Part shown: in pieces, positions 4,674 through 49,150 of the stretch | Position numbering within the stretch: position 1 is the first letter of the stretch | Layout of the letters: every line of letters starts with the position of its first letter | From: a virus | Direction: 5' to 3' (one strand) | Length of the DNA: 64,000 nucleotides | IMG/VR virus record: IMGVR_UViG_3300044640_001517 | Span: 26,335 to 90,334 of that record | Notes under the pieces: model-generated | What the model was told of the DNA's origin: nothing | The model's input: only the letters and a program-made list of their open reading frames with translations | The model's database searches: none | Position numbers and translations under genes: made by a program

Positions 4674-5170
4674 AGATATGTCGTTCCTTGAGGCGTGTCT
4701 CTGTCGATTGTTGTTACGAGTATTCCGCAGTTCCTGAGATATGTAACTGATGTCTCAGGATTGCGATGCGCGTCCACTCCGCCTATTCTACATACAACTC
4801 GCTTGATTCCTGAGTTTGATATGAGCTTTGCACATTGCATACACGGAGGGCTGCTAATGTAGATAGTTCCACCCTCGCTCAACGAGCGATCTACATACAA
4901 AAGTGCGTTTGCCTCGGCGTGGATCGCAGGGCAGGCATCATACATATTGTCAAGTGGTGCAACGCCTTTTGCGCGATCGCACCAGTTGATGCACTCACCA
5001 GACTCTGGCCAACTTGCGGCAGGTCCATTGTAGCCTGTTGCGACGATGTGCTGATCGTGCGAAACAATTGCAGCACCCATCTGTGCACGGGTACAGCGTG
5101 ATCGTTTTGCTACGGCGTCAACGACCGCAAGCCAGGTATCGTCCCAAGACGGACGATTGTCACTTGCCAT
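4670..5170 (-). CDS. Deoxycytidylate (dCMP) deaminase
   Basis: The zinc-dependent cytidine/deoxycytidylate deaminase signature is intact: HAEANALLY supplies the zinc-binding His and catalytic Glu, and PPCMQCAKLI the two Cys ligands. RAQMGAAIV and VATGYNGPA are further family landmarks. The frame is open upstream, but the ATG at 5170 (MASDNRPSWDDTW) matches the usual N-terminus and gives 166 residues; the extra upstream residues coincide with another gene (5160-5336). Role: dCMP to dUMP, feeding a ThyA-type enzyme. The neighbouring ThyA homologue may itself prefer dCMP, in which case the two enzymes would compete for or partition the same pool. Confidence 0.92.
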   Translation of the reverse strand: MASDNRPSWDDTWLAVVDAVAKRSRCTRAQMGAAIVSHDQHIVATGYNGPAASWPESGECINWCDRAKGVAPLDNMYDACPAIHAEANALLYVDRSLSEGGTIYISSPPCMQCAKLISNSGIKRVVCRIGGVDAHRNPETSVTYLRNCGILVTTIDRDTPQGTTYL

Positions 5171-26332: not shown

Positions 26333-26356
26333 TGTCCCTCCTCCGGGATCAGTCAC

Positions 26357-31922: not shown

Positions 31923-32654
31923 CTATTTAGCACCTTCATCTGCTTGTACTTTATCTTGTACAGGACCGCCTGCTACCCAGGCATCACATGTACGCGAGGC
32001 CGCACACTTGAAGTCGAAAGCCTCACAATACCCTAGTTCTGCGATGTCGATTGCGTCCCAGGCGTTCTGTTCGCTTGATCCACCCTGCTCCAGTCCCCCA
32101 GCGATGCAGTCACGCATCTGCTTTGTAATAATGAATACCGCGCAGTTTCCGCAGAGGCTTTTCTTCGCGTCATCGATCGTGACAGACCACCTGTCAGCTT
32201 TTGCCTGCCAAAACTCTTCATTTGGCTCTGCCGGATTTAGCGGCCCGTAGCCTGCGGTATCGATCGCGTTCTGACGGTACTTGATGTTTAGCGCAATGTC
32301 CTGGGTGGCTGGAGGGCACTTTGCTGGCGCCGCGGCCGTAAGCGCGTAGTTGTGGTTTCCTTCGTCATCTACCTCGTAGCGTGGTTTTTCGCCTCGCATG
32401 TCAAACGAGTCGTAGTACTTGACGTAATCTACTTCTACTTCATCGATCGTAAACTCGCCGCTGTGATCTTCATAGAACTGGTATGTATCAATCTTGTTCC
32501 ATGTACCGTTGTCGCGCATGAGCAATCCGCCCTTACTTGGACAGGCAAACATGAGATATTGGACGTCGTAGTTATCGTCTACAAGGACGTAAAGATCTTC
32601 ATCTTCTTTGATCTCAGTTGGCCATGTGTCAAGTGCTTTTGTGTCTTCTGCCAT
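31923..32654 (-). CDS. Cys-rich virion-operon protein
   Basis: A 243-residue protein immediately before the protease gene (no gap). The N-terminal half is very acidic and aromatic. The C-terminal half has a Cys pattern like a high-potential iron-sulfur or zinc cluster (LCGNCAVF, then RDC, LGYCEAFDFKC, RTCDAW), similar to the Cys module in the next gene. The shared module suggests the two were once one protein or are co-packaged. The cluster type is not determinable from sequence alone. Confidence 0.72.
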   Translation of the reverse strand: MAEDTKALDTWPTEIKEDEDLYVLVDDNYDVQYLMFACPSKGGLLMRDNGTWNKIDTYQFYEDHSGEFTIDEVEVDYVKYYDSFDMRGEKPRYEVDDEGNHNYALTAAAPAKCPPATQDIALNIKYRQNAIDTAGYGPLNPAEPNEEFWQAKADRWSVTIDDAKKSLCGNCAVFIITKQMRDCIAGGLEQGGSSEQNAWDAIDIAELGYCEAFDFKCAASRTCDAWVAGGPVQDKVQADEGAK

Positions 32655-32669: not shown

Positions 32670-35600
32670 CTATAGTTGAATTCTGTTAAGCTTCTCATCA
32701 GGCTGTATCGCCCTAATTTTATACATAATTCCGCGACTTGAGAACGTTATTTCTCGTTTATTTGGGTCCCACTTAAAGCCACTGTTCTCCTTGAGTTGGA
32801 ACGACAGACCACCATCACGGTCAGTCGTGATCTCCATGTAGCTTCTAATCGGAAGACCTTGGTCATCAAAGTCACGAATGATCTTTGCCGAGTATGCTGC
32901 ACGCAGCCAGCCGGCGTATTCACCGTCGACATTTTCAAGTACGGCCTGCGTGCCGGCGCGGTTGAGGTAGTTACCGTACTTTGCAAACTCGTCGTAGTCA
33001 GGCAGTGGAAGCATGTTTGTGTCTTTCTCTTCACCAGCCGAGGTGACGGGCATTGGTGGCACAGTGCGTCCAGTGTACAGCGTTAGGTTTATAAGCTGTT
33101 GCATGATATATGACTGCAGGTTCCTGTCCCTTGTGTTGGCGTACATGGGCAAAAGCATGCCTCTAGCCGCACTGTACATTTCAAATGACTTCATCTTTGC
33201 AACTTTTTTAATGATCTCGTCAACAAGTTTGTACCTGTCTAAGATATCAGCGTAGTCTTCTCCGGTTGGATTGCCTGCGTTTTCCTGCCCAAACGGAATA
33301 ACTATCTCCGCCCTAAGCATTGTGTCGTATCCACCTGCGTTAGTTACAGCATGGTTTCCAGAAAACGGCAACCAGTCGACCTTGCCTTCCTCTTCCTGCC
33401 TGTCAAACGGAGAGTTGTATTCAGCAACTTTATTTCTCAATACATTTACGTCACTGGCCAACATTGGCTCCACGTACGCGTCTCCAGATAAAACGGCGCC
33501 TGCACTGCCTGCGTCGTGCGTGTAGTAGTGCCCGTCTGGATACCTAACAATGATCTGCGGTAACTGTCTTGTGTTTTCTATTTCAAAAGGATCTAACCCC
33601 ATGTCAACTGTAAACATATATTTTGCAGCTACTGCCACGGATCCTGCAGGCGCGGGTTGATAGTGCAGATCTGATCCCGTATATGTAAGCATCGCCGCAA
33701 GGTCATTAAAGTCTACAGTTTCACTTCCACCCGCCTCTGTAAATGCTTCTGTGAGGTTTTCTTCTGCAAAACGCAGCAACTGTCCTTTAGCGCTGTCTTT
33801 ACTTCCTCTTCTATCTTCTAAGATTTTTGATCCAGCAGTCAAGATAATTTCCTCTATCGGAGTTCCGTCTATCTCAGTAATCCCACGTTCCTTTAGCATT
33901 TTAATTGCGCGGTCACGAACAAGTTGTGACACAACAATCTGCGCGTCCTTTGTAATTGGAACACCGTGCTTAACCATCGCTTCCTGGCCTTCGTACTTGA
34001 CTGCCCTTAAGATATCTGTTCCAGGGACACGCTTGCCGTACAGGTCGTCTATGTTTGCATATAGATCTGATCGCTCAAAGATGTCAGTTGCTGGCCACCA
34101 GATACTTCCTTCACTGTTTGCGTTAAATCCGCCCATGACTTCTAGCGTGCTATTTTCGTCATGCTTTGTCGGCCTAAGAAACACGTAGTCAGCCCCGCCT
34201 GTCCATAGGTCTTCAGTCGAGGACATTCCCTTATAGTTGAGACCTTCTTGTACTCGAGAAACTGTTGCAACTAGTCCGTTTGTTACTACGTCAACAATTG
34301 CGTTTGTAGTTACCTGTATAAGTTCTTCTGGGGTCGGTGGTCTGCTCTGTGTATCAACAAGATTTGCAACTGCTTTTTCAAGACTTAAGTTGTGCTTAAA
34401 GCCTTTTATGCCTGTATCTTCTTGCATAAGAAACGCCACATTGTCTGGAAGCATATACTCAATGCGTCCATGAGACCCGATACGCGGGAACACATCTGCT
34501 GCTTCTACTCCCCAGCGTTCTTTGATCTTTTCAAGTTTCTTATCACGACGATCTTGGTCTGTAATGTTGATGTTTGGGTCAGTCTGAGAGTCGAACAGCG
34601 ACAGCAGTCTGTTTTCAATAAGCGACTTTGTGTCTTGCTGTTGCGCGGCGCGCACATCACGTACACCGGCCGCGCGGAGCGCCTCTTCGATATCAGACTG
34701 CTCGGCGTCAATTGGAAGATCAATGATCACCTGGTTGTGGAATGCTGCAGGCGCTGATTCATATTGTGCGTCAAGTGGTTCAAGACTATTGTCGTCATTT
34801 GCACGCATGATATTTATTGACCACGGATTGCCTGTATCTTCGCTATCTGAGACAAACATTCTGCCGTTATTGAATACCGCTCCGCCCCAGTTATTTACAA
34901 CACTTTCACCTGAGAGAACAATGTCGCCGTTTTCAGCAACGCTTACACGTTCAATTTGCGGCGCCTCTGCTCTAAACAAACTTCCAGCTTGACCTAGATT
35001 AGATGAGATTTCTTGTGTAACTTCCGCTCCGCGCCAGGACGTAAGTTTGAATCGAAGGCGCAACTTGCGCTCGCCGTCTGGCGTAATGATTGTTGATGCA
35101 CGGATGTCAAGATCTTCAATATCTGTACTGTCGACAGCCGCTGATACTCCGCGTTCTTTGTACTGATCTGGGCGATCTACAACAGTAGAGACAGCCTCCA
35201 TTAGAGAAGGAATGCCAGTAAGTCCAGATGAAGATATAGGCTTTGGATCTTTAATGACAACAGGAGGTCTACCTGCAGGTGTGACTTCTGAATTAGATTT
35301 CCCGTGCAGCTTTATCTTGTCACTTGTCACGAGTCTTGCGCCTTCACGCAGAGATAGTCTATAGTCACTTTCTTCAGTTGCGTCCATGTATTGTATGCGG
35401 TCTTTCCACTTCTTAACCTGTGGATCAGTTGAGGCGTTTAGCATCTGATCAATAAACATGTCAAGATTCATCAATGAAGGCCGTGCAAAATCCCAGTCTT
35501 CTGCAAGTTGCTTCATTTTCTTTGAATTATCAAAGTCTCCGCCGAGATACATGTCTGACGCGTTTTCTTTTATGGCTTGATCGAGAAGCGCAAAATACGC

Positions 35601-38600
35601 TCCGGCATTTTTATTTATCTCTTCTTGACTACGGACATCGTCTTCTTGGCGTTCAAATATCATCTCAATACCGTGACGAACAGCCGCGGCAACGTCTTGT
35701 CTAGATGTAATCCCATCTGCCATGAGCAAAAACCTAGGCCATGTTGACTGATCACCGCTTCTAAATAATGTTGGATCCCAGCCCGTCCTGATTACGGGTG
35801 TCTTGATGTCGTTGACGGTTGACTCAATATTTTGCTTGAGGATCTTTGCAGACTTTGCGCTGCTTCCGCTGGTTGTGTCCATGTCAGTGTTTATCGCAGC
35901 GAGTAGATCTTGGTATTCTTGCTCGCCTGCTGCCTTAGGAATATCAGGTACCATCGCCAGTGGATTTGCAAGATTTGCGTTTAGAAAATCAGCAACAGCT
36001 TTGAGCTCAGGTGAGTCATACATGTTGTTGATCTGCTCTTCTGTAAATCCTTTATTGAACCAACTTGTCTGAGGACTAATTCCAAATATCGGATACCACT
36101 TGTTTGTAGGTACACTTGTCTTTCCACCCGAACCTGTGCTTGCGTAGAACGGAACACTGACGCCGTTGATGTTGACGAGCACGATCGGACGACCTGCGAC
36201 GTTTGCGATTGACATCATTGTCTCATTGACAGGCATCTTTACGAGAGTCGCTGACATTCCACGGATCTGATCATGAAGAGTTGCGTGCATGTCTGAGAGG
36301 GCACTGTCAACCATCTCTGACATCACCTCTGGATCAATTGCGTTTTGCTCTGGTGCAGGTGTTTCATCACCAGTCTCGACTGTTGTGTCGGGGGTCTCTG
36401 AAACTTCTGGATTCCATGGTGGAGGTGGTGGTATATCGTCAGGAGCCTCTGTTGCCCCCTCTGGGGCTTCAGCTTTTGGGAGCGCTGAGCCGCCGTCGCC
36501 TTCTGGAGGACTAGGTGGAGGTTCAACGCCTACACCGCCTTCTCCTTCTGCTGGTGGTTCACCCTTAGGAGCTTTTGATTTCTTAGCCTTTGGATCGATC
36601 TCGCCCGCCTGCACCTTGTTCCAGATCTCCATCTGCTGTTCAAGATTCTTAGGCTTCTTCTTTTCGCTTCCCTTTTCACGTGTGATCTCGACGTATGGAT
36701 CTTCATCAGGACCGATGACGGTAAGTTCACGTGTGTTGTACGCCAGACGCGCAACGTACGGACCCCAGGCACCCTTCTGCTCTGTTGGACGTGGGTCAAT
36801 CTCCATGCGGACCTTGACACCGCCCCAGGTCTTTTCATACTCCTCGACGATACCTGCGTAACCAAACTTGGTACGGACACGCATGCCAGGTGTGAGGAAC
36901 GTTGTGCCGTCCTTCGCGTAACCTGCTGGGCGACCCTTAGAGTCGACAGCGTCGATCGGTGGGAGAGCGGCTCCTGTTGGACGCCAGTATGCCGAACCGT
37001 CAATGTAACGTTTTACTGCCTTGACCATGTCCTTGAATGACTCCATGTCAACGTATCTCTCGCTGAAGATGTCATATGTTGGTAGTGAGTCAATGATCGC
37101 GTTCAGTCGTGCGAGTGCTTGATCGTCTGTCATTGTTCCGTTTGCAAGAGCCTCGCGGATCTGTCGGACCTCTTCAGCAGCCTTCTTGATCTTGTTGCGG
37201 TCAGTTGCCATGAGTACCGAGTCTTCGCCCGTTACTTCGTCACGTGATTTCTCAACATCATCAAATGCGTTCTGCAGGTCAGCTGCTTTTTCGGAGTCAT
37301 CCTTGTAGCGGAGCACCTGCGACATATCAACGTTATTGTTGGTTGTCTCGAGCTGCTCTGGAGCAACATCATCTGGTGCCTGCTGTTCGCCCGTAGGTAC
37401 TACACCTAGCGGTGCAGGTACATCGTCTGGACGCCACTCTGGATCAAGCTTAGGTTGCTCAGCGGGTGTCTCTTTAGGAGTAAGTTTACTAATGCGGATC
37501 GCATCTGCGGCATCTGCCGCCTGAAGCATCAGACTCTGGAGGTCCCCAGCGCCTACCTCTGCGTAAGGTTCAAGAAGCTCGGCAGCATCGCGGAATCGCT
37601 CTTCAGCGTCGACGTACTGTTCACCTTCATAGGCGTAGAGCGCGTCTTTAACGGCTTGACGGAACTTCTTGATATTCTTCTCATCTTTTGAACTGCGATC
37701 TGAGTAGTCTTCAAGAGTATCGTCAGCATCTTTAACCGCCTGCTTTACAGACTTGATGATGCGCTCGTTGTCATCTCCACCATCGGAAGGTGTAGGTGTT
37801 GGTGCTGGTGGCTCTTCAACTCCACCGCCGCCTTCACCTTCTGTTGAAGGTACAGGCACTTCGGGAGCATTTGGCTCTTCAACAGGTGCAGGCTCTGCTG
37901 GTTGCTTGACAAAGCTATCGATCCAGCTAAGAGCACCGCGTCCTAGTTGCTTCTTAGCACGTGTAACTGCAACGTATGCAATCCTGAACTCTACTGGATC
38001 TGGCATCTCAACTTCGCCAGTTGCCTTATTGACACGAGGGCCCCAGAAGTCAGTCCAGATCAGAACCTTGTCCCACTCTAGACCCTTCGCCTGGTGGACT
38101 GTTGTGATAAATACGTCGATCGGCTTGGCATCAGCCTCGGCCGGCGCGACACCACCGTTGAGTGAGACGCTCAGTTTCTTGAGTACGTTGCTGATAGTGT
38201 CTTGGTTTGTTGTCTCAAGACGCCACTGGCCCTTTGACTTGTCCCACTTGAAACCGTTCTTTGCGATCGTTGACTTGTTCTCAAACGTGTTACCAAAGAC
38301 GCCGATTCCGTTTTCGTCGATCGTGTAGTCAACGCCCTTGCCGAGTGATCCTTCAGAGCCAACGTCTGTATCGTCAATGTCGACTGACTTCAGTGCTGCG
38401 CCTGTGCTCTTGGCAAGATGCAGTTGATCAAGGAGACCACGGATTCCATCGATGCCTTCAGTCTCAACCAGCCCAACAAACAACTTAAGCTTATTGCTTG
38501 CGTTGCTGTTCTCGTCTTCGGCCTCTTTCTTGACCTCCGCCCATGTCCTAAACGGTGCAAGTTCTGGATGCATCGGCTTAGGCTTTGTGCCGGTGCCTCC

Positions 38601-41600
38601 GTTGAGCAAGTATTCCGCAGAGTCTGTGAGATTTACAAGATCATTCTTGTAGTTCTTTGTCACGCCGACAGTGCGTCCGCGCTGAAGCTGATCAAAGATC
38701 GCGGAGAGTCCGCCGCTATTTGTACGCACAAGAATTGCATCAGCTGTGTCATAAAGCGATTCCTCTGGAACGAGTTCGCCCGGATCTGCGTTTCCACCGA
38801 TAACACGGTACGGTGACTCGAGCATGCTCAGCCACTTGTTGCCTTCATTTGCGATATTTGCACCAAAGCGCCACGACTTTGTGAGTGGGAACTCGACAGC
38901 TCCGAGTACTTTCCCGAGTTGGTTTTCTCCACCACGAAATGCGTAGATCGCCTGGTTTTCATCACCTACATAGACCTTTTGGATTGTCTGATCTGCGATG
39001 ACCTTGCCTGACACAGGGTTGATGTCTTGCGCCTCGTCAAAGAAGATGAAGTCAACGGCTTGCTTAAGTCCCGAGCCAATCTCGCCAAGATCTGGATTTG
39101 ACAACGCCCACATCTTTGTGATGATGGTGTTGTCCATACGCAGCTTGCCGTTTGGATCCTTGTAGTCTTCCCACATCTTGTTTACGATGTCGAGCATCCA
39201 AGGCTTAACGTCTTGTTCTGGGATATCAAAGTGCTGTGGACCAATCTCTGGATCAGCGCTGATTAGATACTTGCGCATCGCCTCCATAAAGAACTTGTGC
39301 GCTTCATACAGACCGTATCCTTGGGCACCTGGACCTTCAAACTCTGTGATGCCGAGATACTTGTCAATATCCTTGTAGTATGAAAGCTCAGGGTTCTTGT
39401 CGAGCTTCTTTACGATATCTTTAGGGGCCCAGCGTGTTGCGATCGCGTCATTGGTGATGACCTCGATGTTTGTAAGACCGGCCTTCCTAAAGCGTTCTTC
39501 AGCTTCAAGCTGCGCTGACTTGTTGAACGCGATATACACTCCGCGCTCTTGAGCAGCCTCTTTCTTCTTACGCTTTCCTGCGAGAAGAAGTGTCGCTGTC
39601 TTACCGGTTCCTGCGAGTGCCTGAACAACGACGTTCTTGCCCTCCATGATCGCATCAAGAATTGCGCGCTGTTCCTCGGTTGGCTTGAATTGCTCGTCCT
39701 TATATGGATCGTTGGTATCAACGCCGTCTTGTGATGGCGTGTCAATCTCTTGCGCATCGACCATCGATGACTCATTGCTTGTACTTCCACCGGCGACGCC
39801 GTCAGGATCGATCTCACCGATCGGAAGCGGCTGTGCCTCGCGGATCATCTGTTCAACTGAAGGTACGGAGCAAGGTCCGTTTGCAGGACCAACGGCCGCT
39901 GTCAATCCAGCGCCACCGCAGTTCCAAGAAGCCGCGATCGCCTTGGCGGCGACGTACTCTGCAAGATCTGCCTCGTACTTTGCGTACGCATTCTCGTAGT
40001 CAGCGATTTCCTGCTGCTTAGCCTCAAATGCACCGTCAACATTAAGAAGTGTTGTCGGCGTTGTGTCGGGATTATTGATAGCACGCGTAAGCATTGCATC
40101 AGTAATTTCCCACGAGGCCTGAGCATCTGCATCTGCGCGGTGCCAGTCTGGCAACTTAACTTCAAGGAATTCAGCAACTGGTCCAAGACTGTTTGATGCA
40201 CGACGCTTGCCGTCTTTTTCACTTACCTGACTTGCACCAAACTGTGTCTTTGAGTTCCACTTAGGAAGTGTGCCTTCAGCGAGATCTTTTGAGTCAATTG
40301 TTCCAACAATGTTGATTGACAGACCATTTGCGCTGAGAACTCGTTGAAGAATCTCAAGGTCAAACGGCGTGTACTGTCCGCCAAGAATTACCTCGTCACC
40401 TGCATGTTCTTTGACAAAATCTAAGAATTGCTGATGCGCGTCCTTCATCGAAGGCTGAGTTGTGAGCCACTCGTCTGTTACAGGCGAGCCGTCCATCTGC
40501 TTGAGGTTCTTAGCAGACCAGTCAGAAAGCTCATGCTCTGGATTCATGTATGAACTAAATTGAGCACGTACCTCTCCGTCTGCAACAAACGTTCCGCCGA
40601 TCTGCACCGGCTGGTTACGTCCACCCTTTTCAGGTCCTGGTAAACCTGTTGATTCATAGTCAAAGAACATGATAGGTGTCTTGCGGATGATCGCCGCGGC
40701 CTCTTCCCAGGTCTTGGCGTCCTTGAGAAGCTCAGCCATCTTTCCGGTGAATGCACCTGGTGAAGGTTTGCGTGGCGCCTTAGGACGGTGCAGTGCTGGT
40801 TTATCTCCCTTAGGTGGAATTGTGCCACCGCGTGCAACTGGAATGATTGTTGTTTCATTCCACTCTTTACGTTGTGACTCGTGACCTGGGAAGTAACCCT
40901 GCACGCTTACCTTGTTCTTTGGCGTCATCTGATCGCGGAACACACGTTCAATTACGAATGAATCGCCTTCAGCAACGTCGCCAGGTTGCAGATCTTGCGC
41001 GGCGTAGCCGATGCTCTCTGTCAAAGGCACGCGCTCTGCAAATGGATCAACTGTTGTATCTTTAATTCCAAGCTGATCAAGTATTGACTGACGACGACGC
41101 TTGAGCATGTCCTTAAGAAGTTCATTTTCTTTAGGACTATTTACGATCGAATCAACGATCTCGTCAATGCGACTTGGCGTGATGTTGAGGAGCTTTTCTC
41201 CGCTCTTCTTGATGTCTGCCGCTGTCATACTGCCAAACACATCTGAGGCGGTTGGGTTCATTCCAGGATCGCGCATTGAGTCAAGTTCAGCAACCTCTGG
41301 GCCAAACCATTCTTTACGTGAACCACGGGCGCGCCATACAAGCACTCCACCTTGATCAACGCGAATTGGATTGCCGTCTCCGTCTGCAACAACATTGTCG
41401 TAGACCATGCCGATTACGTCGTAGTTAGACAACCACGCGTCAATCGCAAAGCCTTCATGCAACTTGCCGAGGAACTCTGGATCATTGATGTAGTCATCCA
41501 TTCCAGATGTGGCGTTTGGAATCATCGGACTGATGATCTGTAGTGCACCGTCGCGTGTTCCAAGACCTACATCTGTTGCAGGAATACCAAGTTCACGATA

Positions 41601-44600
41601 CAAGGCTGATCCAAGTGTCTCGACATCAGCGTGATCTTGCGAACGCGCTGTCTTGACGTAGTAGCGATTTCCTTCGCTGTCTTCGTAAACACCACCTTGG
41701 TTTGAGCCTGCCTGTCCGGCTACACGCTTCCAGTCTGATACATCGCCGTATTCACGAGGAGCTGTTCCTTGTGTCGGAGCCTCTGGAGCTTCGACCACTT
41801 CAGGAGCCTCTGCCTCTGTCGGTTGACCGTACGCCTTCTTGAGCGCGTCTTCTGTTGCGCGCTTAAGCGTGATGATGTACTCGTTTTGGCCAGGCTTAAG
41901 AACTGCCGGCTGTTCGCGTACACTGTCGACGATAAACTCACCGGTGCCGAGGTGCTCTTGTTCTTGGTCATACCACGAGAATCCGTTGAGACTGACAGAG
42001 TCAATCTCACCTGCGGCGACCTCAAAGACGATACGTACGTCGTTTGGATTTGTAGGCGAGAATCCCACCGCACCGATCTCGCCTGTTGTTAGGTCTGTCT
42101 CGGTGAATGGACGTGGGTCAAATGAAACAACAAAGCCAGGCGTTGTGTATTTCTTGAACAGCTCAGAGTTTGCGTTTACGCCGATTGAACGATACAGCGG
42201 AATCTCTGATACTTCCTTTGCGGCGGCGACAAGTCTAAATAGACCGGCAGCAGGCGTGTCGCTCTCAAGGTCGTCGACACCGTCGGCGATCGCCTTCTTT
42301 GAGTCAACAAGATCTTTAAAGCCACCAAAGTCTTCATAGAGCTGGTAGTACATCTCCATCGCCTTGCCGCCGTCACCACCGGTGAGTCGTTCAAGTGCGT
42401 CAAGAATTATGGCACGTGAACCAGGGTGCTGCCAGTCTTCGAGGTCGCTGTCGCCACCATCGATTGAGAGCATAAGACCCCAGTAAGACTGGAACGCCTC
42501 GCGCTCTTCAGCGCTCTCACTAAATGCCCACGGAAGATATGTATCAAGATCGCGTGCAAGTTGCGCATCTGCGTCGCCTTCTTGCGAAAGATCAAGACCG
42601 TTTATTCCACGAGAGATAAGTTCTTGTGCAAGATCTTGGATGTTTGGATTTGTCTCTTTATGCTGATTGATCAGACGGAACGCTGTTATCGCGTTCTCCG
42701 GTTTTCCAAGTTCTCCGTTGATCGCCTGTGCGGCACGTGTCTGAGCGAGTCGATCGCTGAGTGGAATCGCGGCGCTCGGTGAACCTGCAGGAGGTGTGTT
42801 GATCGTGTCAACATAGTTCAACTGATTCTTCTTAGACTTGTCAGGTGACGCGCTGTCAAAGATCCCGGCGAGCAAGAACCCAGCATCCATACCTGTCTGT
42901 TCAAGTGCCTCAAACAAAGCCTCGGCCTTGACAGGTTCATCTCCACTTTCAAACGGAAGGTTTCCATATCCGTTTGCTGGGCCTGAGTCAGATGGAAGAA
43001 CAGCGTCGCGGAGTGCGCGAACAAGTTCATCCTCGGAGAACTTACCGCTCAATACCCTAGGATCGTCTGTGTAGTCAGCGCTGTCTTGGTTTGTGCGACC
43101 TTCAGGCTTATAGAACTCAAAGATATTTGGCTTGTACGCGCCTTCAGGCGTTGTGTACATCGAGTCAAAGGCCTCATCATTAAATGTGCCCATGTCTTCT
43201 GCGTCTGGTTCGCCGCCAAACAGGTTCTCGTCTACCGGCTCGTCAAGATCTCCAGCAATGTTGTCTGAGTCTGCGAGGTCACCGTTGTACCACTTACCGA
43301 AGTCTTCTTCACGTCCCTCTGGAACTGAGAAGTCAACGATCGGCCAGCCGCCGCCAGCGCCTTCTGACACAACAACATCTGCTTCGCCTTCAGGAAACTT
43401 TGCCTTGAAGTCCTTGAGCACATCATCAAGTGTTCCTTCTTCAAAAGCGACGTCAACCTCAAAGCTTGTTCCTGGGTTACCGTTCTTAAGCTCGGTGTTG
43501 TCTCCCATTGGAATGTTGTACTTTTCAGCAAACGCAACCGCGTCACCTGTTGGGAAGTCTTCAATGTTGTCTTCGCCAAACCAGTCGTTAAAGCGTTCTT
43601 CTTCGCCTGCTGGAATATCAAACTCAAACACTGGGTATCCGTTTTGTGCATCGCCTGTAAAGCGAGCTTTTCCACCTGGGATGTCTTCTTCGAACTCTGA
43701 AATGATATCTTCGTTGCTACGACCTTCAGGAAGAACTGCAAGACGACGTGTAGTTGTTGCTGCTGGTTTTTCTTCAAAGTTATTGTTGATTCTGTCGAAG
43801 GAAAGCTTGTCCTTTGACTGCTGTAGACGATCCAAGTTTGACTTTGCGCGCTTGTGAAGTTTGCCGTCTGGACTATCAGGTCCGTTAAGCACGTTCTTCA
43901 TTGTCTCGATCTTGCGGTTGAGATCAGCTATCTGCCTGTCAAACTCAGATACTTTTTCTTCATATGCAGGAGTTGCTGCGGTTGGTGTTGGCCATGCAGC
44001 GTCGACGAGACGATCAAGTTCGTCCTGCGGCATGTTGACGATGTCGTCAACCTTGACGTTTGTGTCAGCCGCAGGCTTGTTCATCTTGTCAATCGTGAAC
44101 GTGCGGTCTTCGCCGTCGGTCTTGCTGAAACCTTTAAGCTGCTTCTTGCCGGCCTTGTTCTCGACGATCTCTTCAGGCGTAACCACGCGAAGCTTATCGT
44201 TGAAGTCAAACGCAACGTCTTTCTTTTCTTCAATTGACTTCTCAATGATTGCTGGAAGATTTGCAGTTGGTGTATCACGCAGGTCGTTTGCCGCGTCTAC
44301 GAGACGTTGGATCTCGGGTGAGATCTCTGGTGGTTCAGCAAACAGTGTTGGTTGACCAGGCTTTGTCTTCTCCATTTTTGCTGGTCCTGCTGGAGCAGCA
44401 GATGGACGTGAAGGCGCGCCAGCGCGCTCATCAGAGTCAGGAATTGGCCGACTATCTTCTGCGGACTGTAGACCTTTTTCTTCCCGCGCTGCAAGAAGAT
44501 CTTGCATCAACTCTGGATACTCATCAAAGTCTGGAGTTGGACCGACGTAGGTCCACTCATAACTTGTTGTTGGAATACCTACAGGTTTCTGTTCCCAGTT

Positions 44601-47600
44601 ACCTGGATCATCAAGCCGTTCTTGGAATTTTTCTCGCTCTCTTTGCAGTTTTTCTTGACGCGTTGCTTTTGGTTCACGCTTGCCGTTCTTTATCGCAATG
44701 GCCTCTGCGTTTGGCATGTCAGCCTTGACTGCCTCAGCCGCCTCGGCGAGTGTGTCGGTAGTTGCAATCTGCTTGTTGTTACCTTCGCCTAACCAGATGC
44801 CTTTACGCCATACCTCAAACTTGCTCTTTCCATCTTTTTGTACAGCCTCGGTGATGCTGTGATCTTCGCCGTACTCGTCTGCCGGTGGAATGTGCGTCCA
44901 TGCGTTTGCCTCTCCGCCATACATGCCGGCGATACGGATATCCCAGCCTTCTGCGGTTGTGCCTTGCGGAACATCTGCCATCGGCTTGTCCAGGCTCGGG
45001 TCAATAATCCGTTTTCCGTCAGGTCCAAGCTTGTAAATCTCGGGCAGAGGCTCGTACTTGGGTGGTTCAAGTGGAATCAGTTCCCCGTCAGGTCCAAGCT
45101 TGAAATTCTCGTCGGGCCCGCTCCAGATCTGGTCAGGTCGCAATTCTTTGTCGTCGGGGATGTTAGGCAAGTTCTCCCACGGCAGATCATCCCACGCTTC
45201 TGCTGGGATACCATCTGGGGGCTCAGGCCACTTGGTGCGACTGGAAGGCTTAGGAGCAACGATCTTGTCCCACGCAAAGTTCTTGCTGGTGCCGTCTGAG
45301 TCCTTGGCCTTTAGGTTCGTGCGACCTGTCTGTCCGTTCTGCCAGACGCCTTCTGGAGTAACAACGCGGTCCTTGTCGCTATACATGAAGTGGAGCTTTT
45401 GGTCGTTATCAATAGCATCTTGAACAAACTTCTTGATGTCAGCGATCTTGTTGACTTCTTTTGGATTGAGGTCAATGACATTTTCTGCGGCGCTTGGTTG
45501 TACCTCATCTCGCTTAACGTCCCATCCGGCCGGAGCTTCAGGAGTGCTTACACCTGTAACCTTGTCAGCGGTAAATGTGCGACCTTCACCGTCTGTCTCA
45601 CTGAAACCGACGATGTTTGTCTTACCTGTCTTAGGACTTGTATAGATACGTTCTGGTCTAAACGTACGATCTTTTCCACCGTAGCCAAACTTGACAGGAT
45701 ACTGACCGTCGATCGCCTTCTGCATCTGATCAACAACCTCTTCAGGCGTGCTGTCAGGTTTGATAAACTGTGGTGCCTTGCCGCGGTCGGCCTCTGGCAT
45801 CGTGATGATCTTTGCCTTTTCTTTCTTCGCCTCTTTCTTAGGTGAAGGAGCATCCATCTTTGAGATGGTAAACGTGCGCTCTTCGCCGATCGCATGATCA
45901 AATCCAACGAAGTTTGTTTCACCGGTCTTCTTGTTGGTATATGTATTGCCGCTTGGTTGAACCTCGCGATCTTTTCCGTTATACTTAAATCGAAGAACGT
46001 CGCCGTTACGGTACGCTTGCATGACTGCGCCGATCTTTGACATTGACGTGTCACCTGCAAAGTCAACCAGATTGCCCGATGGAGTGGCGTAGCTAGGTAT
46101 GTCGACCATCGCTTTTCCGCCGCCGCGCTCTTCTCCAGTCAGTCTAAATCCATCTTTTTCGGCGTCATAGACCTCGTCTTCGGTGAACCAATATGCGCCG
46201 ACATTTTTTGACGCCATCTTGTATTCTTTTACACCGGTGTCCATCAGCTGTTTGTACGTAAGACCCTTAACGGCATTCTTCATCTTTTCAACATCAAGAA
46301 GAACACGATCTGTCGGGACACCCATTGACTCGAGCTGTGCCGAGTCCATGATGTAGTCCGTTGCGTTATAGTCACCGTCTGTCGCCTTGTCGAGCGCGTT
46401 GCGAAGATTTGACTCTGAACCTGTAAGCTTTACAGATCCGTCGTCTTGAAGTTTGATGTCAACACCAGGTGCAAACTCCTGCTTCCACGCATCAAGACCT
46501 TCTTGAGTTACAGGCTCTCCGTCTGTCTTCCAGTCAACACTGACAGACTTAACGTCTGCCTTTTCAAGCTGCGATGCTGGCTTTTCAAGTTGCGCTTTTT
46601 CTTCAGCTGCGCGCTTGTTTTCTTCATCAGCCATTCGCTGAACAGCAGGAGGCACTGGACCAGGGCGGTCGCCAGGTCCTGTTGTCTCACCCGCCGGCTT
46701 AAACTTATCTTCGCCGATGTCTTCTTGAACAACGTCAACACCCCAGCCACCTTGGCTGAGCAACTTCTGACCTTGCTTGCTGTTGAGAAACTTTTCATAC
46801 TGATCTTGGTCGGTAAGTGCTGTAAGCTCAACAGAGTCCCAACCGTCCGCCATGCCGATCTTTTGGTTTCCAACCGCACGGAATACTGACGCCTTGCGTG
46901 CGCCGGTGATCTCTTGCTGGCCGTCTTTGTTTATTGGGATCTCAACACGGTAACCGTCAGCGCTCATAAACGCGACGTGGTTAGGCTGTGATGCCTGTGT
47001 AGGTGTCCAGCCTGTCGGTGCGTCAAGCTTTCGCATTGACGAGAAGTTGACAGCGTACTTTTGATCTTCGCGAGAGACAGCTACTTCTGGGGTGTCCTTT
47101 AGATACGACTTCTTAATGATCGCCTTTGCGGACTGACCTTTCTTAGCTGGTACAGCGTAGACTCCGTTTGGGATATTTTTATCGTCTTTGATCTCGACTT
47201 CAATGTCATCAACACCTGACATGCCGACAACTTTTCCACTTACGTAGCTGTGTTTGCCAGACTTGAAGATGTTGAATTTCCAGCCACCACCCATGAACGC
47301 AAAACGGCCAAAGCGGTCACGGCGTTGCATACGTGCACGGGCAGAACGCGCCGCACGTGAGTTACCGCCAAGACCAAAGCCAAGTACGGCGATGATCGGT
47401 TCAAGATCAACAGCGGCTGTGATCGGGACAACACCAGGTCCCAATGCCGCGATACGTGCAAACGCGTGCTTGCGCTCAAATGAACCGTGTTCGTACGAGT
47501 GAGCAGACGCGACAAGTGCGCGGATGTCGTCGTCGATGATGAGGTCATCGGCCGCGATCCAACGTGCACGTGCGTGGCGCAACGCCGACGCGGTCATCGC

Positions 47601-47915
47601 GTGCGCGCGTGTCGAGAGCGGGTGACCTACCGAAAGAAGGTCAGAGTTTTCAAGAGAAGAGGTTGACACCTTGTTCTTTGAAGAAAGCGCGATAAAGCCA
47701 GACACGGCGCGTAACGCAGAGAACGCACGTGTTGAGTTGCTGCCGTATACTTCCTTGCGGATCTCACGGTTTGCAACCTCGATCGCCGAAGCGAGCGTTA
47801 CCTGACGTTCTGGTTGAATTGACTTGTTTGCAGTATCAAGCATCGTGATGATGCTTGAGCGAAGACGAAGTAGTTCAGCCGTACTGAGCTGTGTGCGCTT
47901 TTTCTTGTTTGACAT
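32670..47915 (-). CDS. Giant 5,081-aa polyvalent virion protein
   Basis: One uninterrupted frame of 15.2 kb in the position where MuF-type proteins usually follow the portal. Approximate domain order: basic N-terminus (RSARARMQRRDRFGRFAF near 190); four WYL-like modules near 630-690, 730-785, 830-885 and 1225-1280 (f.Y..k.R.v.P.., RTFTI.KM); a duplicated acidic module near 1410 and 1510; an ADP-ribosyltransferase-like domain near 1900-2010 (LYRSIG, VVSFDPRPFTE, EQEHLGTGEF); a kinase-like domain near 2060-2270 (YYVKTA, NYDVIG, VDQGG); a DnaQ-type exonuclease near 2410-2610 (FDYEST, TPFDLEIL, HRADADAQ); an SF1 UvrD-type helicase near 2750-3340 (AGTGKT, FFDEAQD, VGDENQAIYAFRG, TRAKKQ); acidic Pro-rich linkers; a KOW-like segment near 3680; and a 1,200-residue uncharacterised end. 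It is probably packaged and injected, with several activities against host defence or for early DNA handling. Confidence 0.9.
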   Translation of the reverse strand: MSNKKKRTQLSTAELLRLRSSIITMLDTANKSIQPERQVTLASAIEVANREIRKEVYGSNSTRAFSALRAVSGFIALSSKNKVSTSSLENSDLLSVGHPLSTRAHAMTASALRHARARWIAADDLIIDDDIRALVASAHSYEHGSFERKHAFARIAALGPGVVPITAAVDLEPIIAVLGFGLGGNSRAARSARARMQRRDRFGRFAFMGGGWKFNIFKSGKHSYVSGKVVGMSGVDDIEVEIKDDKNIPNGVYAVPAKKGQSAKAIIKKSYLKDTPEVAVSREDQKYAVNFSSMRKLDAPTGWTPTQASQPNHVAFMSADGYRVEIPINKDGQQEITGARKASVFRAVGNQKIGMADGWDSVELTALTDQDQYEKFLNSKQGQKLLSQGGWGVDVVQEDIGEDKFKPAGETTGPGDRPGPVPPAVQRMADEENKRAAEEKAQLEKPASQLEKADVKSVSVDWKTDGEPVTQEGLDAWKQEFAPGVDIKLQDDGSVKLTGSESNLRNALDKATDGDYNATDYIMDSAQLESMGVPTDRVLLDVEKMKNAVKGLTYKQLMDTGVKEYKMASKNVGAYWFTEDEVYDAEKDGFRLTGEERGGGKAMVDIPSYATPSGNLVDFAGDTSMSKIGAVMQAYRNGDVLRFKYNGKDREVQPSGNTYTNKKTGETNFVGFDHAIGEERTFTISKMDAPSPKKEAKKEKAKIITMPEADRGKAPQFIKPDSTPEEVVDQMQKAIDGQYPVKFGYGGKDRTFRPERIYTSPKTGKTNIVGFSETDGEGRTFTADKVTGVSTPEAPAGWDVKRDEVQPSAAENVIDLNPKEVNKIADIKKFVQDAIDNDQKLHFMYSDKDRVVTPEGVWQNGQTGRTNLKAKDSDGTSKNFAWDKIVAPKPSSRTKWPEPPDGIPAEAWDDLPWENLPNIPDDKELRPDQIWSGPDENFKLGPDGELIPLEPPKYEPLPEIYKLGPDGKRIIDPSLDKPMADVPQGTTAEGWDIRIAGMYGGEANAWTHIPPADEYGEDHSITEAVQKDGKSKFEVWRKGIWLGEGNNKQIATTDTLAEAAEAVKADMPNAEAIAIKNGKREPKATRQEKLQREREKFQERLDDPGNWEQKPVGIPTTSYEWTYVGPTPDFDEYPELMQDLLAAREEKGLQSAEDSRPIPDSDERAGAPSRPSAAPAGPAKMEKTKPGQPTLFAEPPEISPEIQRLVDAANDLRDTPTANLPAIIEKSIEEKKDVAFDFNDKLRVVTPEEIVENKAGKKQLKGFSKTDGEDRTFTIDKMNKPAADTNVKVDDIVNMPQDELDRLVDAAWPTPTAATPAYEEKVSEFDRQIADLNRKIETMKNVLNGPDSPDGKLHKRAKSNLDRLQQSKDKLSFDRINNNFEEKPAATTTRRLAVLPEGRSNEDIISEFEEDIPGGKARFTGDAQNGYPVFEFDIPAGEEERFNDWFGEDNIEDFPTGDAVAFAEKYNIPMGDNTELKNGNPGTSFEVDVAFEEGTLDDVLKDFKAKFPEGEADVVVSEGAGGGWPIVDFSVPEGREEDFGKWYNGDLADSDNIAGDLDEPVDENLFGGEPDAEDMGTFNDEAFDSMYTTPEGAYKPNIFEFYKPEGRTNQDSADYTDDPRVLSGKFSEDELVRALRDAVLPSDSGPANGYGNLPFESGDEPVKAEALFEALEQTGMDAGFLLAGIFDSASPDKSKKNQLNYVDTINTPPAGSPSAAIPLSDRLAQTRAAQAINGELGKPENAITAFRLINQHKETNPNIQDLAQELISRGINGLDLSQEGDADAQLARDLDTYLPWAFSESAEEREAFQSYWGLMLSIDGGDSDLEDWQHPGSRAIILDALERLTGGDGGKAMEMYYQLYEDFGGFKDLVDSKKAIADGVDDLESDTPAAGLFRLVAAAKEVSEIPLYRSIGVNANSELFKKYTTPGFVVSFDPRPFTETDLTTGEIGAVGFSPTNPNDVRIVFEVAAGEIDSVSLNGFSWYDQEQEHLGTGEFIVDSVREQPAVLKPGQNEYIITLKRATEDALKKAYGQPTEAEAPEVVEAPEAPTQGTAPREYGDVSDWKRVAGQAGSNQGGVYEDSEGNRYYVKTARSQDHADVETLGSALYRELGIPATDVGLGTRDGALQIISPMIPNATSGMDDYINDPEFLGKLHEGFAIDAWLSNYDVIGMVYDNVVADGDGNPIRVDQGGVLVWRARGSRKEWFGPEVAELDSMRDPGMNPTASDVFGSMTAADIKKSGEKLLNITPSRIDEIVDSIVNSPKENELLKDMLKRRRQSILDQLGIKDTTVDPFAERVPLTESIGYAAQDLQPGDVAEGDSFVIERVFRDQMTPKNKVSVQGYFPGHESQRKEWNETTIIPVARGGTIPPKGDKPALHRPKAPRKPSPGAFTGKMAELLKDAKTWEEAAAIIRKTPIMFFDYESTGLPGPEKGGRNQPVQIGGTFVADGEVRAQFSSYMNPEHELSDWSAKNLKQMDGSPVTDEWLTTQPSMKDAHQQFLDFVKEHAGDEVILGGQYTPFDLEILQRVLSANGLSINIVGTIDSKDLAEGTLPKWNSKTQFGASQVSEKDGKRRASNSLGPVAEFLEVKLPDWHRADADAQASWEITDAMLTRAINNPDTTPTTLLNVDGAFEAKQQEIADYENAYAKYEADLAEYVAAKAIAASWNCGGAGLTAAVGPANGPCSVPSVEQMIREAQPLPIGEIDPDGVAGGSTSNESSMVDAQEIDTPSQDGVDTNDPYKDEQFKPTEEQRAILDAIMEGKNVVVQALAGTGKTATLLLAGKRKKKEAAQERGVYIAFNKSAQLEAEERFRKAGLTNIEVITNDAIATRWAPKDIVKKLDKNPELSYYKDIDKYLGITEFEGPGAQGYGLYEAHKFFMEAMRKYLISADPEIGPQHFDIPEQDVKPWMLDIVNKMWEDYKDPNGKLRMDNTIITKMWALSNPDLGEIGSGLKQAVDFIFFDEAQDINPVSGKVIADQTIQKVYVGDENQAIYAFRGGENQLGKVLGAVEFPLTKSWRFGANIANEGNKWLSMLESPYRVIGGNADPGELVPEESLYDTADAILVRTNSGGLSAIFDQLQRGRTVGVTKNYKNDLVNLTDSAEYLLNGGTGTKPKPMHPELAPFRTWAEVKKEAEDENSNASNKLKLFVGLVETEGIDGIRGLLDQLHLAKSTGAALKSVDIDDTDVGSEGSLGKGVDYTIDENGIGVFGNTFENKSTIAKNGFKWDKSKGQWRLETTNQDTISNVLKKLSVSLNGGVAPAEADAKPIDVFITTVHQAKGLEWDKVLIWTDFWGPRVNKATGEVEMPDPVEFRIAYVAVTRAKKQLGRGALSWIDSFVKQPAEPAPVEEPNAPEVPVPSTEGEGGGGVEEPPAPTPTPSDGGDDNERIIKSVKQAVKDADDTLEDYSDRSSKDEKNIKKFRQAVKDALYAYEGEQYVDAEERFRDAAELLEPYAEVGAGDLQSLMLQAADAADAIRISKLTPKETPAEQPKLDPEWRPDDVPAPLGVVPTGEQQAPDDVAPEQLETTNNNVDMSQVLRYKDDSEKAADLQNAFDDVEKSRDEVTGEDSVLMATDRNKIKKAAEEVRQIREALANGTMTDDQALARLNAIIDSLPTYDIFSERYVDMESFKDMVKAVKRYIDGSAYWRPTGAALPPIDAVDSKGRPAGYAKDGTTFLTPGMRVRTKFGYAGIVEEYEKTWGGVKVRMEIDPRPTEQKGAWGPYVARLAYNTRELTVIGPDEDPYVEITREKGSEKKKPKNLEQQMEIWNKVQAGEIDPKAKKSKAPKGEPPAEGEGGVGVEPPPSPPEGDGGSALPKAEAPEGATEAPDDIPPPPPWNPEVSETPDTTVETGDETPAPEQNAIDPEVMSEMVDSALSDMHATLHDQIRGMSATLVKMPVNETMMSIANVAGRPIVLVNINGVSVPFYASTGSGGKTSVPTNKWYPIFGISPQTSWFNKGFTEEQINNMYDSPELKAVADFLNANLANPLAMVPDIPKAAGEQEYQDLLAAINTDMDTTSGSSAKSAKILKQNIESTVNDIKTPVIRTGWDPTLFRSGDQSTWPRFLLMADGITSRQDVAAAVRHGIEMIFERQEDDVRSQEEINKNAGAYFALLDQAIKENASDMYLGGDFDNSKKMKQLAEDWDFARPSLMNLDMFIDQMLNASTDPQVKKWKDRIQYMDATEESDYRLSLREGARLVTSDKIKLHGKSNSEVTPAGRPPVVIKDPKPISSSGLTGIPSLMEAVSTVVDRPDQYKERGVSAAVDSTDIEDLDIRASTIITPDGERKLRLRFKLTSWRGAEVTQEISSNLGQAGSLFRAEAPQIERVSVAENGDIVLSGESVVNNWGGAVFNNGRMFVSDSEDTGNPWSINIMRANDDNSLEPLDAQYESAPAAFHNQVIIDLPIDAEQSDIEEALRAAGVRDVRAAQQQDTKSLIENRLLSLFDSQTDPNINITDQDRRDKKLEKIKERWGVEAADVFPRIGSHGRIEYMLPDNVAFLMQEDTGIKGFKHNLSLEKAVANLVDTQSRPPTPEELIQVTTNAIVDVVTNGLVATVSRVQEGLNYKGMSSTEDLWTGGADYVFLRPTKHDENSTLEVMGGFNANSEGSIWWPATDIFERSDLYANIDDLYGKRVPGTDILRAVKYEGQEAMVKHGVPITKDAQIVVSQLVRDRAIKMLKERGITEIDGTPIEEIILTAGSKILEDRRGSKDSAKGQLLRFAEENLTEAFTEAGGSETVDFNDLAAMLTYTGSDLHYQPAPAGSVAVAAKYMFTVDMGLDPFEIENTRQLPQIIVRYPDGHYYTHDAGSAGAVLSGDAYVEPMLASDVNVLRNKVAEYNSPFDRQEEEGKVDWLPFSGNHAVTNAGGYDTMLRAEIVIPFGQENAGNPTGEDYADILDRYKLVDEIIKKVAKMKSFEMYSAARGMLLPMYANTRDRNLQSYIMQQLINLTLYTGRTVPPMPVTSAGEEKDTNMLPLPDYDEFAKYGNYLNRAGTQAVLENVDGEYAGWLRAAYSAKIIRDFDDQGLPIRSYMEITTDRDGGLSFQLKENSGFKWDPNKREITFSSRGIMYKIRAIQPDEKLNRIQL

Positions 47916-47917
47916 AT

Positions 47918-49150
47918 CTAGCTTTCGATGTTAGGTAGCAAGTCGGAATCTTGGCTGTCATATGTCATTATGGCAAGTTCGCGCGCACGATCAAATCCGT
48001 GCTCGTTGTTGTCAACTCCACGCTTCCACGCTGCGCGTAGTGCGGGGATGATCTCGTAACCGAGACCGCTGTATTCTGCAAATGCTGTTATTGCGTGTTC
48101 AGGAGATTCGTATTCGTGTGAATCTCCGAGCGTGATGATCAACTCTGTGGCCGCCTGTGCAGCCGCTGTGAGAACTGACTCTGATGCGTTTGACGCTGTT
48201 GACTTTGGGTGACCTTCAGGTAACAAGTCATTGTCTTGCTTGTAGTTTGGATTCGCCGGTGTACCTGACTTGAGTAGACGAAGATATGCGTTTACGCGCG
48301 CCATCGCCCACTGATCACGGGTCTTACCTGGGCGATGTGAGCTCGAGTACGCACCAGCGCCGCGGCGATACACCGCCTTTAACTGTGCAAGTGTTGCTTT
48401 GCGGCCGGCCTTTGCATCTACGTTGTGCTCTTTGACCTTGTTCATCAACGCTGTCTCAGTCTTGGCTGAAAACGTAATGTTGCGTCCACCTGATGCAGAT
48501 CCTTTTGGATTCTTTTTTGATCCCGTGATTCTGTCTTTTTTAGGCGCAGGCTTTGAGGCCGCGGCTAAGAATACAGAATCATCTTCGGTGGCGTAGTCTT
48601 CAGCGCCGTCTTCATAGACGTATACCTCAACCTGCTCTTGCTCTGGCGTTGCGACCAACTTTCCGCCGGTCTGCATTCCGGTGATTGCGCGCAGTTGCCA
48701 TCCCCATTTTTTATGTGCAGCGTCTCGCTCTGCGAGAAGATCTGCAATGCCCTGCTCGTTTGCATCTGATGCGAGCTTAAATGACTCAAGAATACATTCA
48801 TTTAGAATGTTGTTTGCCTGGAGAAGATCTGCGCTCATCAGCACTGGATCGTCAATGCGGTCGTTGTCCATGCTTTCGATCTTTGAGAACGCAGACATGG
48901 CTGACAACGTTGCTGGTGAGTCAAACCCAAGCTTAAGAATACTTTCAGCGATCGGATCAATTGCACCTTGCGCATCTGCGTAGATGTCACCAAACAGATC
49001 ATGAAACTCGGAGAAGTCCGGCCCTTTAACATTCCAATGAAACCCGATCGCCTTTGTGTAAAAAGCAAATGTCGTACCGAGACAGTGACCGAGACTCATT
49101 GCGAGGTTTGCCTTCATCTCGTGTGAATGCTGTGGGTTGTTCATGATCAT
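47918..49150 (-). CDS. Dps/ferritin-like protein fused to phage-specific domain
   Basis: A 410-residue protein after the portal. Residues 15-160 are Dps-like: FHWNVKGPDFSEFHDLFGDI and IDPIAESILKLG supply the ferroxidase residues His38, His50, Asp65 and Glu69 in the canonical spacing. Residues about 205-320 are a widespread phage module (SGGRNITFSAKTETALMNK, YRRGAGAYSSSHRPGKTRDQ, WAMARVNAYL, DNDLLPEGHP), and a C-terminal helical tail follows. Dps proteins oxidise and store iron and shield DNA from peroxide. Placement between portal and the giant gene suggests a virion or injected protein rather than a host-type nucleoid protein. Confidence 0.85.
   Translation of the reverse strand: MIMNNPQHSHEMKANLAMSLGHCLGTTFAFYTKAIGFHWNVKGPDFSEFHDLFGDIYADAQGAIDPIAESILKLGFDSPATLSAMSAFSKIESMDNDRIDDPVLMSADLLQANNILNECILESFKLASDANEQGIADLLAERDAAHKKWGWQLRAITGMQTGGKLVATPEQEQVEVYVYEDGAEDYATEDDSVFLAAASKPAPKKDRITGSKKNPKGSASGGRNITFSAKTETALMNKVKEHNVDAKAGRKATLAQLKAVYRRGAGAYSSSHRPGKTRDQWAMARVNAYLRLLKSGTPANPNYKQDNDLLPEGHPKSTASNASESVLTAAAQAATELIITLGDSHEYESPEHAITAFAEYSGLGYEIIPALRAAWKRGVDNNEHGFDRARELAIMTYDSQDSDLLPNIES

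What the first reader, a model, noticed from the sequence alone, without database searches (positions are those of the whole stretch)
32670..47915. A 5,081-residue polyvalent protein in the virion operon
A single frame of 15.2 kb follows the portal and Dps-like genes and precedes the protease. It joins several unrelated modules (WYL-like repeats, ADP-ribosyltransferase-like, kinase-like, DnaQ exonuclease, UvrD-type helicase, KOW-like) with acidic Pro-rich linkers and a 1,200-residue unknown end. Polyvalent proteins that enter the host with phage DNA are known and often sit in the MuF position, but this size and combination look exceptional. Inference: it is packaged and delivers anti-defence and DNA-processing activities before transcription begins.
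Basis: partly seen in the sequence, partly recalled or inferred. Interest (0 to 1): 0.92.

Follow-up and report, generated by a model that had tools for sequence, protein, structure and literature searches.

The report
Giant modular phage cargo protein
A virus of (probably) freshwater actinobacteria carries one 5,081-residue protein, made of a kinase, an ADP-ribosyl-transferase-like enzyme, an exonuclease, a helicase and other parts, that is most likely packed in the virus head and shot into the host with the DNA; it belongs to a large, previously unnamed family (up to 7,671 residues) of such proteins.

Summary
In detail: one intact 5,081-aa frame (window 32670-47915, minus strand) lies in the head-gene operon (terminase, portal, Dps/DUF5824, giant, Cys-rich protein, protease/scaffold, capsid). 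It is neither an assembly artefact nor unique. Identical frames occur in two other assemblies, and I extracted 30 related proteins of 2,286-7,671 aa, with dN/dS 0.11-0.27 in five pairs tested. The order N-(WYL)n-MID-ART-kinase-[exonuclease-helicase]-KOW-...-C is kept; payload modules are optional. WYL, DEDDh exonuclease and UvrD helicase are confirmed by profiles with intact motifs. The kinase is a HipA/CtkA-type fold. The ART is supported by an invariant R/ExE and viral structure matches. 'KOW' and the C-terminal domain remain unassigned. Packaging is not shown, but indirect evidence supports it: cysteine depletion (2 in 5,081; none in 23,734 aa of family enzyme modules) as in N4 vRNAP and T7 gp15/gp16; an N-terminal RDxxGRF module shared with the protease gene and portal-adjacent proteins of cultured Arthrobacter phage Mimi; a segment similar to mass-spectrometry-detected virion proteins of Cellulophaga phages. 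A new, extreme variant of the known polyvalent proteins, testable in cultured relatives (Mimi gp77, GodonK gp67, Forza gp78/gp80).

The parts
32670..47915 (-). giant ORF, 5,081 aa, ATG start at 47915, stop at 32670
   Evidence: same frame in G001 and G016
46743..47915 (-). N domain, residues 1-391; conserved family-wide; parts shared with the Dps/DUF5824 gene and the protease gene
47301..47321 (-). RDRFGRF motif (res 199-205); one R-D-x-x-G-[RKQ]-[FW] copy in each of 31 family members, at residue 188-232
47586..47597 (-). MTAS (res 107), candidate prohead-protease site, conserved in many relatives (hypothesis)
47412..47423 (-). ITAA (res 165), candidate prohead-protease site (hypothesis)
45816..46058 (-). 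WYL-like repeat 1 (res 620-700)
   Evidence: Pfam WYL E 2.8e-6 above gathering score
45516..45773 (-). WYL-like repeat 2 (res 715-800)
45201..45458 (-). WYL-like repeat 3 (res 820-905)
44046..44273 (-). WYL-like repeat 4 (res 1215-1290)
42825..43199 (-). MID domain (res 1573-1697), unknown function, found in all 31 family members, duplicated in many
41778..42278 (-). ADP-ribosyltransferase-like domain (res 1880-2046), R...S...ExE
41046..41777 (-). HipA/CtkA-type kinase domain (res 2047-2290)
40779..41045 (-). small all-beta domain preceding the exonuclease (PRE, res 2291-2379)
39981..40778 (-). DEDDh 3'-5' exonuclease (DnaQ/RNase_T; res 2380-2645)
39894..39905 (-). LTAA (res 2671) in the linker between exonuclease and helicase, the region that also holds the protein's only two cysteines; candidate processing site (hypothesis)
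37881..39773 (-). UvrD-type SF1A helicase (res 2715-3345), motifs I-VI intact
   Evidence: Pfam 6e-14 and 3e-11; PHROG 1967 3e-81
   Evidence: family-conserved; weak DUF4947 only
35736..36263 (-). region similar to MS-detected virion proteins of Cellulophaga phages phi14:2, phi17:2 and phi4:1 (res 3885-4060)
33495..35351 (-). C domain (res 4189-4807), in 27 of 31 family members, no PDB fold match
32673..33494 (-). C-terminal tail (res 4808-5081), in several of the larger members
47918..49150 (-). Dps/ferritin + DUF5824 gene; shares N-domain res ~17-106 with the giant
49165..50904 (-). portal protein (75.6% identical to DSL-LC01 portal)
31923..32654 (-). 243-aa Cys-rich protein (homologue annotated high potential iron-sulfur protein in DSL-LC01)
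26466..31922 (-). 1,818-aa head-maturation (S78-like) protease plus scaffold fusion; carries two RDxxGKF motifs
24428..26356 (-). major capsid protein (72% identical to DSL-LC01)

Best explanation
The ORF encodes a giant virion cargo ('polyvalent') protein. Made late with the head genes, it is drawn into the prohead by its N-terminal head-operon module, probably trimmed there by the S78-type protease, stored beside the DNA, and threaded unfolded and almost cysteine-free through the tail into the host, where its modules refold and act before phage transcription: a kinase and an ART modify host proteins, the exonuclease and helicase process DNA ends, and WYL repeats bind nucleic acid or nucleotides. 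Shown here: the ORF, its family, synteny, purifying selection, folds or motifs of the enzyme modules, cysteine depletion, shared N-terminal module. Inferred: packaging, processing, ejection, targets.
For: Locus between portal and protease in the window, DSL-LC01 and the relatives whose flanks were read. N-domain parts recur in that record only in the Dps/DUF5824 gene and, weakly, the protease gene, and RDxxG[RK]F occurs 3 times in the 90-kb record, all in the giant or protease gene. Cultured Arthrobacter phage Mimi gp77 (2,709 aa) follows the portal, starts with the same RDxxGRW module, carries the homologous helicase and has 0 Cys. In GodonK and Forza the portal is followed by 0-Cys proteins with the homologous kinase. 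Cys: 2/5,081 against 57/8,117 in other window virion genes and 52/3,866 in non-virion genes (Fisher p 3e-10 and 4e-17); family 46/123,179; enzyme modules 0/23,734 against 16/1,202 in two stand-alone homologous helicases; known ejected N4 vRNAP 0/3,500, T7 gp15+gp16 0/2,065. Residues 3892-3982 resemble MS-detected virion proteins of Cellulophaga phages. Catalytic motifs largely invariant, dN/dS 0.11-0.27. ATP- and NAD-dependent enzymes imply cytosolic action.
Against: No proteomics for this phage. P1 DarB, a packaged and injected protein, is not strongly Cys-depleted (9/2,255), and some non-ejected proteins lack Cys (window capsid protein), so the signature is neither necessary nor sufficient. 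The Cys yardsticks were a small, hand-picked set. The hTA[AGS] processing motif was found post hoc (head operon 10 observed, 1.9 expected; giants 65 against 37). No MuF and no metallopeptidase domain in the window copy. Delivering ~560 kDa through what looks like a long-tailed phage is a demanding step.
Confidence: 0.72

Rival explanations
1. Packaged, but as a polyprotein: the prohead protease cuts the giant chain into several mature proteins (for example N-propeptide, WYL to exonuclease, helicase to C-terminus), so the mature virion holds separate enzymes.
For: hTA[AGS] sites are enriched in head-operon proteins (10 observed, 1.9 expected) but not in tail genes (3 against 3.1); they recur in giants at res ~107, ~165 and in the exonuclease-helicase linker. 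Payload modules also exist as separate genes in Gordonia phages at the same locus. SPN3US precedent for N-terminal propeptides of head proteins (PMC10052503).
Against: Motif found post hoc; most members have only 0-4 sites; the single frame is conserved in all 31 proteins.
Confidence: 0.3
2. Late cytoplasmic factor that acts in the producing cell (assembly, packaging or late host control) and is not in the virion.
For: Late operon; helicase and exonuclease could serve DNA packaging or recombination; the giant carries the only UvrD match in each of the 8 records that have one.
Against: Near-total loss of cysteine in cytosolic-type enzymes; shared N-module with capsid-protease genes; similarity to MS-detected virion proteins.
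Confidence: 0.17
3. Structural, scaffold or surface giant protein whose enzyme-like domains are decorative.
For: Long acidic Pro-rich linkers; unknown conserved N, MID and C domains.
Against: DxE, FD and HxxxxD of the exonuclease (with a few divergent members), helicase motifs I-VI, ART R/ExE and kinase K/E/D/N/D are conserved across relatives; ATP and NAD enzymes have no role outside cells.
Confidence: 0.06
4. Assembly artefact or chance open frame.
For: Extreme length.
Against: Same frame in three assemblies; 30 relatives; dN/dS well below 1.
Confidence: 0.01

Closest known systems
Polyvalent proteins of phages and conjugative elements (Iyer et al. 2017, PMC5512222)
   Same: Large late-operon multidomain protein joining unrelated enzymes (ART, kinase, helicase); UvrD helicase is on record in a 12,242-aa plasmid member
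   Different: No MuF or LPD hit, no metallopeptidase in this member; kinase is HipA/CtkA-like rather than the truncated kinase described there; a text search found no WYL, DnaQ or HipA named as polyvalent domains in that paper; the N-MID-C backbone has no Pfam match
Actinomycetia phage DSL-LC01 WJZ48510 (3,289 aa, annotated hypothetical)
   Same: Direct homologue, same locus, N, WYL, MID, ART, kinase, KOW-like and C
   Different: Lacks the exonuclease-helicase cassette; no UvrD match in its 129-kb genome
Arthrobacter phage Mimi gp77 (2,709 aa, annotated DNA helicase)
   Same: Directly after the portal, RDxxGRW N-module, homologous UvrD helicase (36.5% over 668 columns), 0 Cys
   Different: No ART, kinase or exonuclease match; has a metallopeptidase-like HEFGH motif; shorter
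Gordonia phages GodonK gp67 and Forza gp78/gp80
   Same: Portal-adjacent, homologous kinase in gp67 and gp78, 0 Cys; Forza gp80 annotated ADP-ribosyltransferase
   Different: Smaller; in Forza payload modules sit in separate genes
N4 virion RNA polymerase (gp50) and crassvirus cargo RNAP proteins
   Same: Giant Cys-free or Cys-poor virion cargo; one region of the giant resembles MS-detected phi14:2 g067
   Different: Those deliver RNA polymerase; no RNAP match was found in the giant
P1 DarB (injected methylase-helicase)
   Same: Large injected nucleic-acid-acting protein encoded beside the portal gene
   Different: Different enzymes; not strongly Cys-depleted

Membership tests
Polyvalent proteins | two or more domains of disparate biochemical activity in one polypeptide | tested here: met
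   WYL, exonuclease, helicase, kinase, ART-like
Polyvalent proteins | encoded among late virion genes | tested here: met
   portal, Dps, giant, protease, capsid gene order
Polyvalent proteins | packaged and injected with DNA | not testable with these tools
   indirect evidence only
Polyvalent proteins | MuF fusion or metallopeptidase (common, not required) | tested here: not met
   no Pfam MuF hit; no HExxH in the window copy, present in G012 and G044
UvrD/SF1A helicase | Walker A, DEAQD, GDxxQAIYxF, motifs V and VI | tested here: met
DEDDh exonuclease (DnaQ-like) | DxE, FD, HxxxxD motifs | tested here: met
   window: DYE, FD, HRADAD
HipA/CtkA-type kinase | fold match | tested here: met
   CtkA 3akl E 3.6e-7, TMt 0.55, model pLDDT 87
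HipA/CtkA-type kinase | sequence profile match (Pfam HipA) | tested here: inconclusive
   HipA_2 in 2 of 10 members, best E 0.046
ART (R-S-E clade) | R, S, ExE signature | tested here: met
   R and ExE in 22 of 22 domains; the S/T position mostly kept
ART (R-S-E clade) | profile or fold match | tested here: inconclusive
   Pfam ART 0.0022 in one relative, none for the window copy; BFVD lists annotated viral ARTs; the PDB list was filled by kinases
WYL | Pfam gathering score | tested here: met
   27.7 bits against 21.8
KOW | Pfam KOW match | tested here: not met
   only weak DUF4947

The most novel reading that the evidence does not exclude
The N-MID-C backbone is a dedicated payload chassis used by a large group of uncultured phages: an N-terminal head-targeting and protease-processed module (hTA[AGS] sites, R[DG]xxG[RKQ][FW]) plus a cysteine-free threadable chain into which enzyme modules are swapped in frame. 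The signature (portal-protease interval, R[DG]xxG[RKQ][FW], near-zero Cys) would then predict ejected proteins from sequence alone.
Probability: 0.35. Interest if true: 0.85.

Novelty: new variant of a known kind. Interest (0 to 1): 0.7.

Why it matters
If packaged, it is a ~560-kDa multi-enzyme injectable, with family members up to 7,671 aa that rival the largest reported phage proteins. The family gives a natural experiment in module gain and loss, a sequence signature that may identify ejected proteins, and a direct test in cultured Arthrobacter and Gordonia phages of how tailed virions load and eject giant proteins.

Tried and rejected
PDB profile searches with the kinase, ART, C and N alignments gave nothing useful. 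The C-domain model (pLDDT 75) has no PDB match. NCBIfam found only the exonuclease and helicase. Artefact and chance-frame readings were rejected. MuF membership was considered and not met. Literature searches found no description of this family, but subscription papers are not held. An alignment meant to tie the window ART to Pfam-recognised ARTs included a Mimi gene that did not align usefully, and was dropped.

Full report
Observation. The frame 32670-47915 is on the minus strand, 5,081 aa, ATG start, no internal stop. The window is part of a 90,334-base virus record. Two further IMG/VR contigs encode an identical C-terminal part within the same 5,086-codon open frame. The gene order on the minus strand is terminase, several small genes, portal, Dps/ferritin+DUF5824, giant, a 243-aa Cys-rich protein, 1,818-aa protease/scaffold, capsid, then tail genes. 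The giant's ATG lies 2 nt beyond the stop of the Dps-like gene.

Family. The closest annotated relative is the 3,289-aa 'hypothetical protein' of Actinomycetia phage DSL-LC01 from Dishui Lake, homologous at the N-terminus, WYL region, MID-ART-kinase (45% identity over 734 columns), KOW-like region and C domain, but without exonuclease and helicase. Scans of IMG/VR found 239 stretches encoding the N domain and 37 loci encoding the C domain. All 50 records then searched carry the N domain or part of it, in open frames that reach 7,671 aa; some frames are cut by contig ends. I extracted 30 relatives. Jackhmmer mapping shows one order, N-(WYL)n-MID-ART-KIN-[PRE-EXO-HEL]-KOW-C-(CT), with extra copies of some modules in some members; MID is in 31 of 31, C and kinase in 27, ART in 23, EXO in 16, HEL in 13. 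Two close relatives (94-97% identical over most of their length) differ by clean in-frame insertions, one of about 667 residues. dN/dS is 0.11-0.27 in five pairs. UvrD was found only inside the giant frame in the 8 records that have it. In 50,697 phage records the N domain is found only in DSL-LC01, and a scan of 84,980 species genomes found none.

Modules. WYL passes the Pfam gathering score; RNase_T and UvrD are clear. DEDDh motifs and helicase motifs I-VI are intact in the window copy and nearly all relatives (one exonuclease lacks the third motif). AlphaFold of residues 1875-2390 has mean pLDDT 87; the kinase part best matches H. pylori CtkA, with conserved K, E, D/N and D positions. The ART keeps R and ExE in all 22 domains. 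The viral structure library returns multi-domain proteins of Gordonia phages Sixama and GodonK and several annotated ADP-ribosyltransferases; profile support for the window copy itself is absent. Relatives also carry strong ADPrib_exo_Tox, NUDIX and KTSC domains. The C domain is conserved but has no PDB match.

Is it cargo? Four lines, all indirect. First, parts of the N domain recur in that record only in the Dps/DUF5824 gene (E 9e-7) and weakly in the protease gene; RDxxG[RK]F occurs three times in the 90-kb record, all in the giant or the protease gene. Second, cultured Arthrobacter phage Mimi has, between portal and protease, a 2,709-aa protein that starts with the same module (LRDKNGRWIEMGGG) and holds the homologous helicase; Gordonia phages GodonK and Forza have kinase-bearing proteins at the same place. 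Third, cysteine: 2 in 5,081 residues; 46 in 123,179 across the family; none in the 23,734 residues of helicase, exonuclease, kinase and ART modules, against 16 in 1,202 for two stand-alone homologous phage helicases. Established ejected proteins show the same: N4 vRNAP 0/3,500, T7 gp15 and gp16 0/2,065, phi14:2 RNAP subunit 2/2,180, while P1 DarB (9/2,255) does not. Fourth, residues 3892-3982 are similar to proteins of Cellulophaga phages annotated from virion proteomics, phi14:2 g067 being encoded next to an RNA polymerase subunit also seen by MS. Crassvirus cargo proteins are known to be stored in capsid and tail and are thought to be extruded partly unfolded (PMC10172136).

Processing. The tetrapeptide hTA[AGS] is enriched in head-operon proteins (10 observed, 1.9 expected) and not in tail genes; in the giants it recurs near residues 107 and 165 and in the exonuclease-helicase linker. 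This was noticed post hoc and is a hypothesis.

Comparison. The protein meets the architectural and genomic criteria of polyvalent proteins (PMC5512222), but packaging is untested and MuF is absent. ARTs packaged in phage heads are an established idea (PMC9503650). The distinct features are the conserved unassigned backbone, the HipA/CtkA-like kinase, WYL repeats, and an optional exonuclease-helicase cassette. Hence 'new variant of a known kind'.

Noticed in passing
window 47918-49150: Dps/ferritin domain fused to DUF5824 in the head operon; the DSL-LC01 homologue matches only outside the Dps part, so Dps looks like a variable add-on.
   Followed up: partly
window 31923-32654: Cys-rich 243-aa protein (8 Cys; homologue annotated high-potential iron-sulfur protein); related segments also occur in neighbouring head-operon ORFs of relatives.
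   Followed up: partly
window 26466-31922: One 1,818-aa gene holds segments homologous to three DSL-LC01 genes annotated capsid maturation protease.
   Followed up: partly
window 9992-11503: Tail-region protein with PVTAPVTAPV-type repeats and 15 cysteines, mostly in its C-terminal half.
   Followed up: no
window 7937-9319: Possible double 2-oxoglutarate oxygenase-like protein (two similar halves by eye).
   Followed up: no
record G014 (160,704 bases): Carries two giant-gene loci of different sequence; two related phages or a joined assembly.
   Followed up: no
L143/L144 (G034) residues 4665-5331: In-frame insertion of ~667 residues, overlapping a second ART-like match, relative to the 94-97% identical protein of G035: recent payload gain or loss.
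   Followed up: yes
window, giant residues ~2650-2690 (nt about 39846-39968, minus strand): The only two cysteines of the 5,081-aa protein sit together in a linker that is conserved in DSL-LC01.
   Followed up: no
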